NCBI RefSeq assembly: GCF_009789675.1
Contig: NZ_CP046913.1
Coordinates: 3,162,001-3,226,000, forward strand
DNA length: 64,000 nt
DNA from: Paraburkholderia acidisoli
GTDB lineage: Bacteria > Pseudomonadota > Gammaproteobacteria > Burkholderiales > Burkholderiaceae
Direction: 5' to 3'
This document shows, in pieces, positions 1,165-13,092 of this stretch (positions are counted from its first letter, which is position 1; the number at the start of each line of letters is the position of its first letter). The notes beneath the pieces are model-generated. The model worked only from the letters and a program-made list of their open reading frames with translations. It made no database searches and was not told where the DNA came from. The position numbers were made by a program, and so were the translations under genes.

Positions 1165-2052
1165 TCAGGCAGCCGCTTCGCCGCGCAGGCGTAGCAGGAT
1201 GCCCTCGAGTGCGTCGAGATCGCCGAAGTCGACGGTGAGCTGCCCTCGCCCGCGACGGCCGACCTTGATCTTCACGGTGGCGGCGAGCAGATCGGACAAT
1301 TCCTCTTCGAGACGGCGCGTGTCGCGGCCGCCATCGTGCGCGGCCTTGGCCTTCACGGCGGGCGCTGCCTTGGTGGTCGCCGAAACGAGCTTCTCGGTTT
1401 CACGCACCGACATGCGCTTGTTGACCACTTGATTCGCGAGCGCGATCTGCGTGGCGGCGTCGACCGCGAGTAGCGCGCGCGCGTGGCCCATGTCGAGATC
1501 GCCGGCCAGCAGCATGGTCTGCACAGGCGCCGCGAGATTGAGCAGACGCAGCAGGTTCGACACCGCGCTGCGCGAACGCCCCACCGACTCCGCAGCCTGT
1601 TCGTGCGTGAAATTGAACTCGTCGAGCAGGCGCTGGATGCCCTGCGCCTCTTCGAGCGGATTGAGGTCCTCGCGCTGAATGTTCTCGATCAGCGCCATCG
1701 CGGCGGCAGCCTGGTCGGGCACGTCCTTCACGAGCACCGGCACCTCGGTGAGCCCCGCGAGATTGGCCGCGCGGAAACGCCGCTCGCCCGCGATGATTTC
1801 GTAGCGTCCCGGTGCGATCGGGCGCACCAGAATCGGCTGCATCAAACCCTGCGCGCGAATGCTCGCGGCGAGTTCCTGCAGCGCCCCCTCGTCCATGCGC
1901 GTGCGCGGCTGATACTTGCCGGCCTGCATCACCGTGAGCGGCAGCGTGTTCGGCGCGCCCTCGATCTTCACCGCCTCGGTAATGTCCGCGCTGCCGCCGA
2001 GCAATGCTTCGAGCCCGCGGCCCAGTCCCTTCTTCCGTGCTACTGCGTTCAT
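1165..2052 (-). CDS. parB: Chromosome partitioning protein ParB
   Basis: CTP-dependent DNA clamp that loads at parS and spreads to organise the origin region for segregation by ParA. The 295-residue product starts MNAVARKKGLGRGLEALLGG, the usual ParB N-terminus. It has the CTP-binding arginine patch GERRFRAA, the segment ALIENIQREDLNPLEEA and a helix-turn-helix (HEQAAESVGRSRSAVSNLL) that reads parS. The C-terminal dimerisation part ends RLRGEAAA. The ATG was chosen over the much longer upstream frame because that frame runs into parA, and GGGGAAG lies just before it. Two matching parS sites are in the window, 2-4 kb away. Confidence 0.98.
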   Translation of the reverse strand: MNAVARKKGLGRGLEALLGGSADITEAVKIEGAPNTLPLTVMQAGKYQPRTRMDEGALQELAASIRAQGLMQPILVRPIAPGRYEIIAGERRFRAANLAGLTEVPVLVKDVPDQAAAAMALIENIQREDLNPLEEAQGIQRLLDEFNFTHEQAAESVGRSRSAVSNLLRLLNLAAPVQTMLLAGDLDMGHARALLAVDAATQIALANQVVNKRMSVRETEKLVSATTKAAPAVKAKAAHDGGRDTRRLEEELSDLLAATVKIKVGRRGRGQLTVDFGDLDALEGILLRLRGEAAA

Positions 2053-2072
2053 CGTGCTTCCCCAGTCTCTCG

Positions 2073-2843
2073 TCAGAGTGCGCGCACGCGCTCGATCATT
2101 TCCGCGCCGAATTGCACATACGCCTGCGCGCCACGCGAGGCGCGATCGAACACCACGCCCGGCAGGCCATAGCTCGGCGCTTCCGCGAGCCGGACATTGC
2201 GCGGGATCACGGCGTCGAACACCTTGTCGCCGAAATGCTCCTTCAACTGCTCGGAGACCTGCTGCTGCAGCGTGATGCGCGGATCGAACATCACGCGCAG
2301 CAAGCCGATCACCTTCAGCTCGCGATTCATGTTCGCGTGCACCTGCTTGATCGTATTGACGAGATCCGACAGCCCTTCGAGCGCGAAGTACTCGCACTGC
2401 ATCGGGATCACCACACCATGCGCCGCGCACAGGCCATTGAGCGTGAGCAGCGAGAGCGCCGGCGGGCAATCGATCAGCACGAAATCGTATTGATCGTCGA
2501 CTTCGGCCAGCGCACTTTTCAGGCGGCGTTCGCGATGCTCGACGCTCACGAGCTCGACTTCGGCGCCGGCGAGTTCGCGGTTGGCCGGCAGCACGTCATA
2601 GTCGAGCGACTCGGGACGCGTGCGTGCGTCGGTCACGGCGACGCCGTCCACGAGCACTTCGTACACCGTGTTTTCGCAGGCGGCTTTGTCGATGCCGCTG
2701 CCCATCGTGGCATTGCCTTGCGGATCGAGGTCGATGAGAAGGACACGTTGGCCCTGCGATGCGAGGCTCGCGGCGAGATTGACCGTTGTCGTCGTCTTGC
2801 CGACGCCGCCCTTCTGGTTCGCAACGCAGAAGATTTTTGCCAT
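2073..2843 (-). CDS. parA: Chromosome partitioning ATPase ParA (Soj)
   Basis: Walker-type ATPase that binds nucleoid DNA non-specifically and moves ParB-parS complexes. The 256-residue length is that of the short chromosomal (Soj) type without an N-terminal DNA-binding domain. The deviant Walker A motif QKGGVGKTTTTVNL is at residues 9-22, followed by DLDPQGNATMGSG and the Walker B segment LIDCPPALSLLT. It is 20 bp upstream of parB, clearly the same operon, and about 100 bp downstream of rsmG, the classic mnmG-rsmG-parA-parB order. Confidence 0.98.
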   Translation of the reverse strand: MAKIFCVANQKGGVGKTTTTVNLAASLASQGQRVLLIDLDPQGNATMGSGIDKAACENTVYEVLVDGVAVTDARTRPESLDYDVLPANRELAGAEVELVSVEHRERRLKSALAEVDDQYDFVLIDCPPALSLLTLNGLCAAHGVVIPMQCEYFALEGLSDLVNTIKQVHANMNRELKVIGLLRVMFDPRITLQQQVSEQLKEHFGDKVFDAVIPRNVRLAEAPSYGLPGVVFDRASRGAQAYVQFGAEMIERVRAL

Positions 2844-2944: not shown

Positions 2945-3643
2945 TTAGCTCGCGGCGACCGGTTCGACCGTGACTTCGGTGAGGTGACGCTCGGCTTCGA
3001 GCATCGGTACTTCGAGACGTATCGTGCGCAGCGCCTGGGCGCCTTCCGGCAAACGCTCGATCTCGCCGTCCGGGCGCACGCCCTTCATCGCCCAGATCGC
3101 GCCGCCGTCCGCAACGAGATGCCGGGCCAGTGTAACGAAATCGGAGAGTTCCGCGAATGCCCGCGAGACGATCAGATCGAATTTTTTCGGCACTTCCACG
3201 CCTGGGCGCAGCGACTCGACCCGTCCCGTCACCACCGAGAGGTTGGCGAGGCCCAGTTCAGCCTTGGCCTGCGACTGAAACGCCGACTTCTTTTGCACGA
3301 TGTCGTTGAGCGTGACCTGCCAGTCCGGCCGCACGATGGCGAGCACGATACCGGGCAAACCGCCGCCCGACCCGACGTCGAGCACGGCGGCGTCGGCGCG
3401 TGCGGGCAAATGCGGCAAGATCGACAGGGAATCGAGAATGTGCTGAATCAGCATCTGGCGCGGATCGCGAATGGCCGTCAGGTTATACACGGCATTCCAC
3501 TTCGCGAGCAGCGCCACGTAGTCGAGCAATTGCGTGTGCTGACGCGCATTCAATTCCACGTGAAGCGCCTTGGCGCCCTCTTCCAGCAAACGGCCCAAGG
3601 CTTCGCGATCGGCGATACCCGGCTGACGTGCGCGGCCCGTCAT
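2945..3643 (-). CDS. rsmG: 16S rRNA (guanine-527-N7)-methyltransferase RsmG
   Basis: S-adenosylmethionine-dependent methyltransferase (old name GidB) that makes m7G527 in 16S rRNA. The 232-residue protein carries [14 protein letters not shown] and [10 protein letters not shown] of the family and the SAM motif [16 protein letters not shown], followed by SRAFAEL. The ATG overlaps the mnmG stop codon as ATGA, so the two are translationally coupled; this decides the start against a longer frame running upstream inside mnmG. Loss of rsmG function is known in other bacteria to give low-level streptomycin resistance. Confidence 0.97.
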
Positions 3644-5598
3644 TGCGTCACCGGCGTCGAGTCGGCACTGGCGTCGCCAGTGTTGGGACGACGGCGGCCG
3701 AGTCCACGCTTGAGATGCACCATCAGCAACGAAATCGCAGCCGGCGTGATGCCCGAGATCCGCGACGCCTGGCCGATGGTTTCCGGCCGGAACTGGCTCA
3801 ACTTCTGGCGCGCTTCGAACGACAAGCCCCGCACTTCGGCGTAGTCGATACCCTCGGGCAGGCGCGTGTTCTCGTGAGCACCATTGCGCTCGATCTCGTC
3901 GGCCTGGCGGTCGATATAACCTTGATACTTCACGCCAATCTCGATCTGCTCCTTGATCTGCTCGAGCAGGATGGTGTCGTCGGCGAGCGGCGCATCGGGA
4001 GCACACGCGCCTTCGCGCAAGCTGCACACGCCGTCGTAGGTCACGCCAGGACGGCGCAACAGATCGGCGAGATTGTACTCACGATCGATCCCCTTACCCA
4101 GCACGGCAGTCGCCTCGTCGACGGAAAGCGTTTTGGGGTTCACCCATGTGGACTTCAGGCGTTCGGTTTCACGTGAAACAGCGTCGCGTTTGCGGCTGAA
4201 GGCATCCCAGCGTGCGTCGTCAACAACGCCAAGCTCGCGGCCAATCTCCGTCAGACGCATATCGGCATTATCTTCACGCAGGCTCAGCCGGTACTCCGCG
4301 CGGCTCGTGAACATGCGATACGGCTCCGACACGCCGCGCGTCACCAGATCGTCGACGAGCACGCCCAGATAGGCTTGATCGCGGCGCGGGCACCATGCTT
4401 CCTTGCCCTGCACTTGCAGACCCGCATTGATGCCGGCCAGCAACCCTTGCGCGGCCGCCTCTTCATAGCCGGTCGTGCCATTGATCTGGCCCGCGAAAAA
4501 CAGACCGCTGATCGCCTTCGTTTCCAGCGATGCCTTGAGCCCGCGCGGATCGAAATAGTCGTATTCGATCGCATAGCCCGGCCGCAGGATGTGCGCGTGT
4601 TCCAGACCGCGCATCGAGTGCACGAGGTCCAGTTGCACGTCGAATGGCAGACTCGTCGAGATCCCGTTCGGGTAAAACTCGTTGGTGGTCAGACCTTCCG
4701 GTTCGAGGTAGATCTGATGCGATTCCTTCGAGGCGAAACGGTGGATCTTGTCCTCGATCGACGGGCAATAGCGCGGCCCCACGCCTTCGATCACGCCCGT
4801 GTACATCGGCGACCGGTCGAGACCGCTGCGGATGATGTCGTGCGTGCGCTCGTTGGTGTGCGTGACCCAGCACGGAATCTGGCGCGGATGCTGCTCGGCG
4901 CGCCCAAGGAACGAGAATACCGGCACCGGATCGAGATCGCCCGGCTGCTCTTCGAGCACGGAAAAGTCGATGGAACGGCCGTCGATACGCGGCGGCGTGC
5001 CGGTCTTGAGGCGTCCCTGAGGCAGCTTGAGTTCCTTGAGGCGCGACGACAACGTTACGGCAGCGGGATCGCCCGCGCGGCCGCCCGTGTAGTTATTGAG
5101 GCCCACGTGAATCTTGCCGTCGAGGAACGTGCCCGCCGTCAGCACGACCGCGCGACTGCGGAAGCGAATTCCGACCTGCGTCACGGCGCCGACGACACGG
5201 TCGCCTTCCACCATCAGATCTTCGACAGCCTGCTGGAACAGCCAAAGATTCGGCTGATTTTCGAGACGACTGCGAATCGCCGCCTTGTAGAGAATGCGGT
5301 CGGCCTGCGCGCGTGTGGCGCGAACCGCGGGGCCCTTCGACGAATTGAGGATGCGGAACTGAATGCCGCCCTCGTCCGTCGCGGCAGCCATCGCACCGCC
5401 CAAGGCATCGACTTCCTTGACCAGATGGCCCTTGCCAATACCGCCAATCGACGGATTGCAGCTCATCTGGCCGAGCGTTTCGATGTTATGGGTGAGCAAC
5501 AGCGTCTTGTTGCCCATGCGGGCGGCAGCAAGCGCGGCCTCGGTGCCGGCATGGCCGCCGCCGACAACGATTACGTCAAACTCTGTGGGATAAAGCAT
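3640..5598 (-). CDS. mnmG: tRNA uridine-5-carboxymethylaminomethyl(34) synthesis enzyme MnmG
   Basis: FAD-binding subunit (GidA) that with MnmE adds the aminomethyl or carboxymethylaminomethyl group to wobble U34 of several tRNAs. The 652 residues match the full-length family. The N-terminal dinucleotide fold reads [20 protein letters not shown], followed by [18 protein letters not shown]; a second signature [12 protein letters not shown] and the C-terminal tRNA-binding helical domain are present. A GAGG lies about 8 bp before the ATG. The gene contains a parS-like 16-mer encoding V-S-R-E-T near residue 475. A second enzyme of the same wobble pathway, mnmC, is 33 kb away in this window. Confidence 0.98.
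4165..4180. promoter_or_regulatory. Near-perfect parS site inside mnmG
   Basis: GGTTTCACGTGAAACA matches the universal parS consensus TGTTNCACGTGAAACA at all positions but the first. It lies inside the mnmG coding frame. It would be bound by the ParB encoded 2 kb away. Binding itself is an inference from sequence. Confidence 0.8.
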
Positions 5599-5738
5599 GG
5601 CGGGACCTCACGCATGATCGGAAATCGACCGCGTGAGCCTTCTCTAGAAAAGTGGTATGCGCGAATTATAACGGTTTCGCGTTTTGGACCGTTCACACCC
5701 GAATTTCGTTCGTCGATAAAAACTGATGCGCAAAGAAA

Positions 5739-5770
5739 AAGCGGCGTGTTTCACGTGAAACACGCCGCTT
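5739..5770 (-). terminator. 32-bp perfect palindrome containing parS; likely livF terminator
   Basis: Left arm AAGCGGCGTGTTTCAC and right arm GTGAAACACGCCGCTT are exact reverse complements. On the minus strand the palindrome follows the livF stop codon by about 20 bp and is followed by a T-rich run (CTTTTTCTTT). It therefore has the form of an intrinsic terminator for the livH-livM/G-livF operon. Its centre is a perfect parS. Confidence 0.75.
5747..5762. promoter_or_regulatory. parS, perfect match
   Basis: TGTTTCACGTGAAACA is an exact copy of the bacterial parS consensus, about 150 bp upstream of mnmG. The parB gene 4 kb away encodes the cognate binding protein. This marks the centromere-like region of the chromosome. 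Confidence 0.95.
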
Positions 5771-5790: not shown

Positions 5791-6540
5791 TCAAACCGGC
5801 TTTTTTGCCAAGCCCAGATAGGTTTCGATAACGCGAGGGTTTTGCGCCAGATCGTTTGCTGGCCCTTCCAAAGCCAGATCGCCAGTTTCCAGCACGTAGC
5901 CGTAATCGGAGATTTGCAGCGCCGCGCGTGCGTTCTGCTCAATCAGCAGCGTTGCCACGCCCGTTTGGCGCAACGCGCTAATGATGTGGAAGATCTCCTT
6001 CACGATCAAAGGCGCGAGCCCGAGGCTCGGCTCATCCAGCATCAGCAAGTCGGGTTTGCCCATCAGCGCGCGGCCCACGGCCAGCATTTGCCGCTCGCCG
6101 CCCGAGAGCGTACCGGCGGCCTGCGCACGCCGTTCCTTCAAGCGCGGAAACAGCGCAAACACGGGCTCAAGCTGATCGAGAAAATTACGCTCCCCCGCCC
6201 GCTTGCGCCGATACGCGCCGAGCACGAGATTGTCCTCGACCGACATCGAGGCGAACAACTCGCGCTTTTCCGGCACAAGACACATGCCCCGCGCCACGCG
6301 GCGCTCGATCGGCTGCGCGCCCACCTCTTCGCCGAGATAGGCGATGCGGCCGCTGGCATGGCCCGTGACCGGCAACGCACCCATGATGGCGTTGAGCAGC
6401 GTGGACTTGCCCGCGCCGTTGGGCCCGATCACCGAGACAATCTGCCCTTTGCCCACTTTGATCGCGGCATGGTGCAGCGCCTCGATCTTGCCGTAGCGAA
6501 CCGCGAGGTTCGAGACTTCCAGAACCGGCGTCGTCATCAT
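5791..6540 (-). CDS. livF: Branched-chain amino acid ABC transporter ATPase LivF (system A)
   Basis: Cytoplasmic ATPase of a HAAT-family uptake system. The 249-residue product has Walker [10 protein letters not shown], signature [16 protein letters not shown], Walker [14 protein letters not shown] and the H-loop-type end TLLIEQNAR. The start overlaps the stop of the fused livM-livG gene (ATGATGA), indicating translational coupling; a second ATG directly follows and either could be used. It is the last gene of the operon, ending just before the parS-containing terminator palindrome. Confidence 0.93.
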
Positions 6541-12323: not shown

Positions 12324-13092
12324 CTCCACTCCTTCGATAATCGTTCTGTTTATTGCCGCGAATCGCGCGGCACACCGGTTCCGCCCGGCCGCTCGAACGG
12401 CGGCCTGAAAGCGATAAACGCTTGCGGAAAATCAACGCGAAAACGCTGACCGTGTGGTCGGTGAATGGCGAGTGTAGCGGCGCGTGTATTCGAATGGCAA
12501 GCGCTTTCCATACGCTTACAACAACGCAAATGGCATGAATGCAACGCGTAACGCAGGAACGCTTGCGGGGCGGTCCGGGAACCGGTTTGGGCGGCGAATT
12601 GCGTAATTCGGGAAAGGGAAATCGACGCGCCGAAACTGCGCTCGAAAAGCGGAGAAAACGGGGAAGACGATGGGAAAAAACGGGGAAGGCGCAGCGAATG
12701 CCACGACTGAAAAACTGCGCGCCGATCACTAACTTCGTCGAACCGGCTTCTAAATTTCCGGAAATAGCGCGCAGAAATATAAAAAGCGCTGTTGGATTCC
12801 CATCCAACAGCGCTTCCTTGTCCGGGCACTTTGTGCCTCAGTTGTCTCCTCGTTCTCCACCTGCAAATTCGGTGCATCAGAACTAGGTGAAACTTTAAAC
12901 TTCGCTCCGTTTCGCAACAACTAGCATTTACCCTAGTGGTGCAGTGCGGCACCGAGTTGGGGCGCTTCAAAGCGCTTTTGCCACATCCCGGGGCGCGCGG
13001 CATTCCGCGCGACGCGGCCCATTCTAACGCAGCGCAGCACCCGTTCCCAAGCGCATTTCACACGCGATTTCGCTCGCCGCGTCAGCCTGGCG
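12324..13092. other. Gene-free region between transport systems A and B
   Basis: About 770 bp without a convincing gene; open frames here have no recognisable product or ribosome binding site. The left half should contain the promoter of binding protein copy 2. The right half holds the strong terminator of system B. The stretch is less GC-rich than its surroundings near 12770-12900. Confidence 0.6.
12776..12815 (-). terminator. Rho-independent terminator of transport system B
   Basis: AAGCGCTGTTGGAT and ATCCAACAGCGCTT form a perfect 14-bp stem with a TCCC loop. On the minus strand it is followed by TTTTTATATT. It lies about 280 bp after the livM stop and would end the system B transcript. 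Confidence 0.9.

What the first reader, a model, noticed from the sequence alone, without database searches (positions are those of the whole stretch)
5739..5770. parS embedded in a 32-bp palindrome that looks like a transcription terminator
Seen directly: the exact 16-bp parS is extended on both sides by eight complementary bases, giving a perfect 32-bp palindrome followed on the minus strand by CTTTTTCTTT, just after the livF stop. One element would then be both the ParB loading site and the terminator of the adjacent operon. ParB bound there could affect termination or read-through towards mnmG, or transcription could affect ParB loading.
Basis: partly seen in the sequence, partly recalled or inferred. 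Interest (0 to 1): 0.7.

Follow-up and report, generated by a model that had tools for sequence, protein, structure and literature searches.

The report
Centromere site doubling as transcription terminator
The short DNA site that this bacterium uses to pull its chromosome copies apart also appears to form the stop signal of the gene next door, an arrangement kept across its close relatives and apparently invented again elsewhere.

Summary
Confirmed. Window 5739-5770 is a perfect 32-bp palindrome, AAGCGGCG-[TGTTTCACGTGAAACA]-CGCCGCTT, the only perfect palindrome of 20 bp or more in the window. It lies 20 nt after the livF stop; the minus strand continues TTTCTTT. It is one of two parS-like sites in the genome; the other, inside mnmG, has no arms. 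In the genus, 137 of 144 genomes have exact parS, 2-12 bases, then five T. Across 101 sites with intact-looking livF the arms vary but stay complementary: left and right change on the same tree branch 21 times against 1.25 expected. The T-run is on the mnmG side in 102 of 103 rows. Where livF is lost or broken, parS mostly stays while the hairpin is weak in 9 of 14 loci. Best reading: an intrinsic terminator whose stem core is parS. Similar parS-terminators occur at other gene junctions outside the family (20 of 21 genomes read in one genus). No RNA 3' end or ParB binding was measured; whether ParB affects termination is open, and one in-vitro study argues against a strong roadblock.

The parts
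5747..5762 (.). parS core TGTTTCACGTGAAACA (ParB loading site by sequence)
   Evidence: exact match; one of two sites within 2 mismatches in the own genome
5739..5770 (-). 32-bp palindrome: terminator stem of 14 pairs with ACGU loop, arms 5763-5770 and 5739-5746 around the parS core
5732..5740 (-). U-tract TTTTTCTTT (its first two Ts belong to the palindrome)
5791..6540 (-). livF, ABC-transporter ATPase; the gene presumably terminated
   Evidence: Pfam ABC_tran; orthologue found directly upstream in the 101 sites
5665..5670 (-). TATAAT, putative -10 of an own promoter of the mnmG operon
   Evidence: present in all 24 aligned upstream regions; position
3640..5598 (-). mnmG (gidA), first gene after the terminator
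   Evidence: Pfam GIDA
4165..4180 (.). second parS (one mismatch) inside mnmG, without complementary arms or T-run
2945..3622 (-). rsmG (gidB)
   Evidence: Pfam GidB
2073..2843 (-). parA
   Evidence: Pfam AAA_31 and CbiA
1165..2067 (-). parB
   Evidence: Pfam ParB_N, HTH_ParB, ParB_C

Best explanation
The element is a dual-use site. As double-stranded DNA its 16-bp core is an origin-proximal parS at which ParB loads (inferred from the exact consensus, the parAB genes beside it and a position about 73 kb from dnaA). As RNA, the same core plus eight complementary flanking bases forms a strong hairpin followed by a U-tract that stops transcription leaving livF (inferred from structure and comparison, not measured). 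The likely history is that in an ancestor of Burkholderia sensu lato the terminator stem grew outward from the pre-existing parS palindrome, where some relatives still have parS and an ordinary hairpin side by side. Two separate selections now hold it: ParB fixes the core; livF termination keeps the arms complementary and the T-run on the mnmG side. It insulates the mnmG-rsmG-parA-parB operon, which has its own conserved TATAAT, from liv read-through. No effect of ParB on termination need be assumed.
For: Conserved: exact parS + 2-12 nt + T5 in 137 of 144 genus genomes, reversed-pattern control 0 in the rows; 126 of 299 family genomes, 9 of 25 genera. Covariation: 91 of 101 sites have 5 of 5 arm pairs (Watson-Crick or G-U) with 23 different arm combinations; left and right arms change on the same branch 21 times against 1.25 expected, or 18 against 0.68 without five odd tips. 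One-sided T-run: 102 of 103 rows against 1 of 103. Context: in the window 20 nt after the livF stop; in relatives mostly 31-50 nt after the end of the livF match. Hairpin median -22.6 kcal/mol against -8.15 for 72 other parS sites upstream of mnmG. Sister genera keep parS without arms. In 9 of 14 loci with absent or broken livF the hairpin is weaker than -15 kcal/mol while the core is exact (7) or changed at one position (2). Independent parS-terminators at other gene junctions.
Against: No RNA 3' end was measured. Five of 14 loci with broken livF (all g10) still have a strong hairpin, so the link to livF is not strict, and the 14 were picked partly by presence or absence of the T-run pattern, not at random. 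Folding energy is not specific: 4 of 15 usable armless mnmG-internal sites and 10 of 72 other sites also reach -15 kcal/mol in the same window. L162, with intact livF, has only -11.5. The scan finds no excess of terminator-like sites.
Confidence: 0.85

Rival explanations
1. Functional coupling: ParB at parS modulates termination (pausing or occupancy), so that read-through into mnmG-rsmG-parA-parB depends on ParB level, or termination beside parS helps ParB to reload after a polymerase has passed.
For: The terminator stands directly before the operon that encodes ParA and ParB; the fusion has arisen repeatedly; PMC10681803 saw more long pauses at 200 nM ParB (passages).
Against: Not needed to explain any observation; processivity unaffected by ParB in vitro (PMC10681803, passages); the mnmG operon has its own conserved TATAAT; most of the other parS-terminators found do not precede par genes in the stretch read.
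Confidence: 0.12
2. The arms extend the ParB recognition sequence.
For: They are contiguous with the core and conserved in the clade.
Against: Arm sequence is free while complementarity is kept; mnmG-internal and sister-genus parS lack arms; parS with broken arms persists where livF is gone; the SPR study of Burkholderiales parS used the 16-bp palindrome (PMC5450999, passages).
Confidence: 0.03
3. The hairpin is a 3'-end stabiliser or processing signal of a liv transcript that ends elsewhere, not a terminator.
For: A strong hairpin just after a stop codon fits both roles.
Against: A T-rich tract directly after the stem on the livF-sense side in 102 of 103 rows is the mark of intrinsic termination.
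Confidence: 0.08
4. A DNA cruciform is the selected form, for example as a topological signal near the origin.
For: Complementary change in the arms fits any base-paired form.
Against: The one-sided T-run, the fixed place after livF and the frequent arm decay without livF are not expected.
Confidence: 0.02

Closest known systems
DNA uptake sequences (DUS in Neisseria, USS in Pasteurellaceae) inside Rho-independent terminators (PMC1852404, section 11 read; PMC2397512, passages)
   Same: A short DNA motif recognised by another system supplies the stem of intrinsic terminators.
   Different: There two inverted copies make the two arms and the motif occurs in many terminators of one genome; here one self-palindromic motif is the top of a single stem, there is one copy in the genome, and the second function is chromosome segregation.
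Chromosomal parS (parSc1 type) of Burkholderia and other bacteria
   Same: Exact 16-bp consensus, near dnaA, with parAB beside it.
   Different: In the forms known to me parS is described as a 16-bp site in coding or intergenic DNA with no RNA role; here it carries complementary arms and a U-tract.
Ordinary intrinsic (Rho-independent) terminator
   Same: GC-rich lower stem, four-base loop, U-tract, just after a stop codon.
   Different: The upper stem and loop are fixed by parS, so only the lower stem is free to vary.

Membership tests
chromosomal parS site | 16-bp consensus TGTTTCACGTGAAACA | tested here: met
   exact at 5747-5762
[quoted passage not shown]
   C1:3,167,747 of 3,240,103 bp, dnaA at C1:571, about 73 kb apart if C1 is circular, which is assumed
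chromosomal parS site | ParB with N-terminal, HTH and dimerisation domains encoded in the genome | tested here: met
chromosomal parS site | bound by ParB in vivo | not testable with these tools
   no ChIP data
intrinsic terminator | stable hairpin followed at once by a U-tract | tested here: met
intrinsic terminator | located just downstream of a gene, in its sense | tested here: met
   20 nt after the livF stop; T-run on the livF-sense side in 102 of 103 rows
intrinsic terminator | stem kept by compensatory changes | tested here: met
   21 same-branch changes against 1.25 expected
intrinsic terminator | RNA 3' end in the U-tract | not testable with these tools
   no RNA data; a search for Term-seq with Burkholderia listed no such study (listing only)
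uptake-sequence terminators (DUS/USS) | motif repeated in many terminators of one genome | tested here: not met
   two parS in the own genome, one of them in a terminator

The most novel reading that the evidence does not exclude
parS-terminators are a recurrent regulatory device: ParB loading and transcription termination act on one another, so that ParB occupancy tunes read-through from the upstream operon into mnmG-rsmG-parA-parB (a feedback on ParB level), or termination beside parS protects ParB loading near the origin from passing polymerases.
Probability: 0.12. Interest if true: 0.85.

Novelty: new variant of a known kind. Interest (0 to 1): 0.6.

Why it matters
A bacterial centromere site that is read as DNA by ParB and, apparently, as RNA by RNA polymerase puts two constraints on the same bases, and they can be seen apart in the alignment (core fixed, arms covarying). 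That the same fusion appears in several lineages at different gene junctions suggests that palindromic parS sites are easy seeds for terminators, and it offers natural sites at which to test how transcription and ParB loading affect each other. It also warns that deleting or mutating parS at such sites may change expression of neighbouring genes.

Tried and rejected
Extended ParB recognition by the arms: rejected because arm sequence is free while complementarity is kept. A strict rule 'livF lost, so arms lost': rejected, five g10 loci keep a strong hairpin with broken livF. G309 and G344 first looked like 'terminator kept, parS lost' (centre of parS changed, hairpin intact), but their livF is broken too, so they are decaying loci, not a clean dissociation. 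Folding energy as the discriminator: rejected, 4 of 15 usable armless mnmG-internal sites also reach -15 kcal/mol; contiguous arm complementarity was used instead. The terminator scan as evidence: rejected. L272 (arms AGCA/TGCT with a T-run) was dropped as a terminator because it lies between divergent genes.

That parS forms a terminator stem was not stated in anything listed or read from searches (open-licence library; listings, and passages of some papers). Two papers that I recalled as the most likely places (on Burkholderiales centromeres and on parS distribution) are not held, so earlier mention there cannot be excluded.

Full report
WHAT IS THERE. The minus strand carries the end of a liv operon (livF, 5791-6540). 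Twenty nt after the livF stop comes a perfect 32-bp palindrome (5739-5770) whose middle 16 bp are an exact parS, followed by TTTCTTT. A TATAAT (5665-5670) lies 66 nt before the mnmG start codon; then follow mnmG, rsmG, parA and parB, all on the same strand. The genome has two sites within two mismatches of parS, this one and one inside mnmG at 4165-4180. dnaA is at C1:571 of a 3,240,103-bp contig and the element at C1:3,167,747, about 73 kb from dnaA if the contig is circular. The closest named MnmG relative listed is Paraburkholderia sacchari (95%).

IS IT MORE THAN CHANCE. The RNA hairpin has 14 pairs and an ACGU loop; the 70-nt stretch folds at -28.3 kcal/mol, z -4.0. It is the only perfect palindrome of 20 bp or more in the window. 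A generic terminator scan is uninformative in this GC-rich sequence (16 found, 15.3 in shuffles), so the argument rests on relatives.

CONSERVATION. All 144 genus genomes searched have a parS match, which can be either site. 137 of 144 have exact parS followed after 2-12 bases by five T, in one orientation per genome; the reversed pattern gives 0 in the rows. The seven others: G044 and G057 have intact arms but T-runs interrupted after four T; G087 has one mismatch at the edge of the core and intact arms; G115 has a core change with intact arms and intact livF; G093 and G097 have broken arms and no intact livF; in G130 no parS was found upstream of mnmG. In a family sample the pattern occurs in 126 of 299 genomes and 9 of 25 genera. 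Among named loci the strong form is seen in Paraburkholderia, Burkholderia, Caballeronia and Trinickia; Pandoraea, Ralstonia, Cupriavidus and the Massilia group have parS before mnmG without arms, and Cupriavidus and Duganella loci show an ordinary hairpin with T-run between two parS. One outgroup locus (G149, L220) has livF, an armless parS and an ordinary GC hairpin side by side. mnmG-internal parS have at most one extra complementary pair in the rows shown.

COVARIATION. I compared 101 distinct sites with an intact-looking livF (at least 74% identity, reaching the C-terminus, at most 115 nt away); 91 have 5 of 5 arm pairs (Watson-Crick or G-U), and 23 different arm combinations occur, exceptions included. 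On a livF+mnmG tree, left and right arm positions 1-5 change on the same branch 21 times against 1.25 expected if independent; without five odd tips (L162, L200, L201 and the two sites of L244) it is 18 against 0.68. At position 6 there is no such excess (1 against 1.2), G-U pairs being frequent there. Median hairpin energy is -22.6 kcal/mol; 100 of 101 are at or below -15, L162 is -11.5. The T-run (six or more T in eight) is on the mnmG side in 102 of 103 rows and on the other side in 1 (two rows more than the 101 because second sites of the same loci are included). Of the ten sites without 5 of 5 pairs, five have one mismatch; L162 has a bulged stem; L200 and L201 have a shifted hairpin in which a second half-parS supplies the left arm; L244 (two rows) is a large hairpin whose 22-bp arms each contain a parS variant.

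ENERGY IS NOT ENOUGH. In the same folding window, 72 other parS sites upstream of mnmG have a median of -8.15 kcal/mol, but 10 of 72 reach -15; 5 of 72 have four or more contiguous arm pairs. Of 15 usable armless mnmG-internal sites, 4 also reach -15. The case rests on contiguous complementarity, covariation and the T-run.

LOSS OF livF. In 14 loci livF is absent or broken into several frames. In nine the hairpin is weaker than -15 kcal/mol (L024, L038, L177, L191, L192, L193, L194, L246, L247); seven of these have the exact core, and L246 and L247 have one change at position 5, a position that PMC5450999 reports as tolerant (symmetrical T5C-A12G, passages). In five, all of genus g10, it is still strong (L173, L181, L210, L242, L243); in two of these (L242, L243) the centre of parS has changed while the mnmG-internal parS is exact. 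Fisher p against the 101 is 3e-9, but it ignores relatedness (L191-L194 are one genus) and the loci were partly picked by presence or absence of the T-run pattern, so it is only indicative. L179 has a divergent but open livF and a strong hairpin and is in neither group. So the arms often, not always, decay without livF, while the core mostly persists.

OTHER LINEAGES. In a phylum sample 279 of 397 genomes have TGTTYCACGTGRAACA and 38 of 397 have it followed by five T within 2-12 bases. Of 34 such loci outside the family that I read, 7 have at least four perfect arm pairs. One of them (L272) lies between divergent genes and is not counted as a terminator. The others: four in genus g85 after an amidohydrolase gene, with a convergent methyladenine-glycosylase gene in three of the four (Pfam checked in L284 only); L267 between convergent rho and a zinc-dehydrogenase-family gene; L290 between convergent inositol-monophosphatase-family and tetR-family genes. 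In g85, of 60 genomes searched I read the 21 listed in full, one site per genome: 20 have at least four perfect arm pairs, with different arms, often T-rich on both sides as suits convergent genes; G823 has two pairs. In the family of G550 (g74) 8 of 48 genomes match; 5 of the 8 have arms of eight or more pairs, at more than one gene junction, and 3 do not. An Oxalicibacterium MAG locus (L054) has one after an aldehyde-dehydrogenase gene, and a g2 genome of the own family (L259) has one between a SET-domain gene and mnmG.

HOW IT MOST LIKELY WORKS. Shown: sequence, predicted fold, conservation, covariation, one-sided T-run, gene context. Inferred: ParB loads at the core; livF transcription ends in the U-tract; the TATAAT, present in all 24 upstream regions aligned, starts the mnmG operon, so that the terminator insulates it. 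parS supplies six ready-made stem pairs and a four-base loop, so a few complementary bases and a T-run turn it into a terminator; this explains repeated origin without any interaction between ParB and RNA polymerase. Coupling remains possible but is not needed, and one in-vitro study saw polymerase pass ParB at parS with unchanged processivity (PMC10681803, passages).

COMPARISON. The nearest precedent is the DNA uptake sequence inside terminators in Neisseria and Pasteurellaceae (PMC2397512 passages; PMC1852404 section 11). This case differs in having one copy, a palindromic motif that is itself the stem core, and a segregation function. I found no statement of it in the library searched; two relevant papers were not held.

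Noticed in passing
window 5598-5645 (-): Between the TATAAT and the mnmG start codon an inverted repeat (CTCACGC...GCGTGAG) with a GAGG just before the start seems to be kept with paired changes in relatives (alignment, fold); it might control mnmG translation.
   Followed up: partly
L245:1780-4622 (G361): A 7.6-copy, 370-bp tandem array of degenerate parS-terminator units between livF and mnmG.
   Followed up: partly
L244:1693-1727 (G346): A large terminator-like hairpin whose two 22-bp arms each contain a parS variant.
   Followed up: partly
L044:2785 and 2880; L184: Two parS-terminators in tandem between livF and mnmG.
   Followed up: partly
L200, L201 (G049, G050): The terminator hairpin is shifted: a second half-parS supplies its left arm.
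   Followed up: partly
Burkholderia loci such as L143: About 260-750 nt lie between the parS-terminator and mnmG in most g12 loci, against about 105-200 in other genera; content not identified.
   Followed up: no
window 12781-12818 (-): Another long terminator-like hairpin (17 pairs) upstream of a livK-like gene.
   Followed up: no
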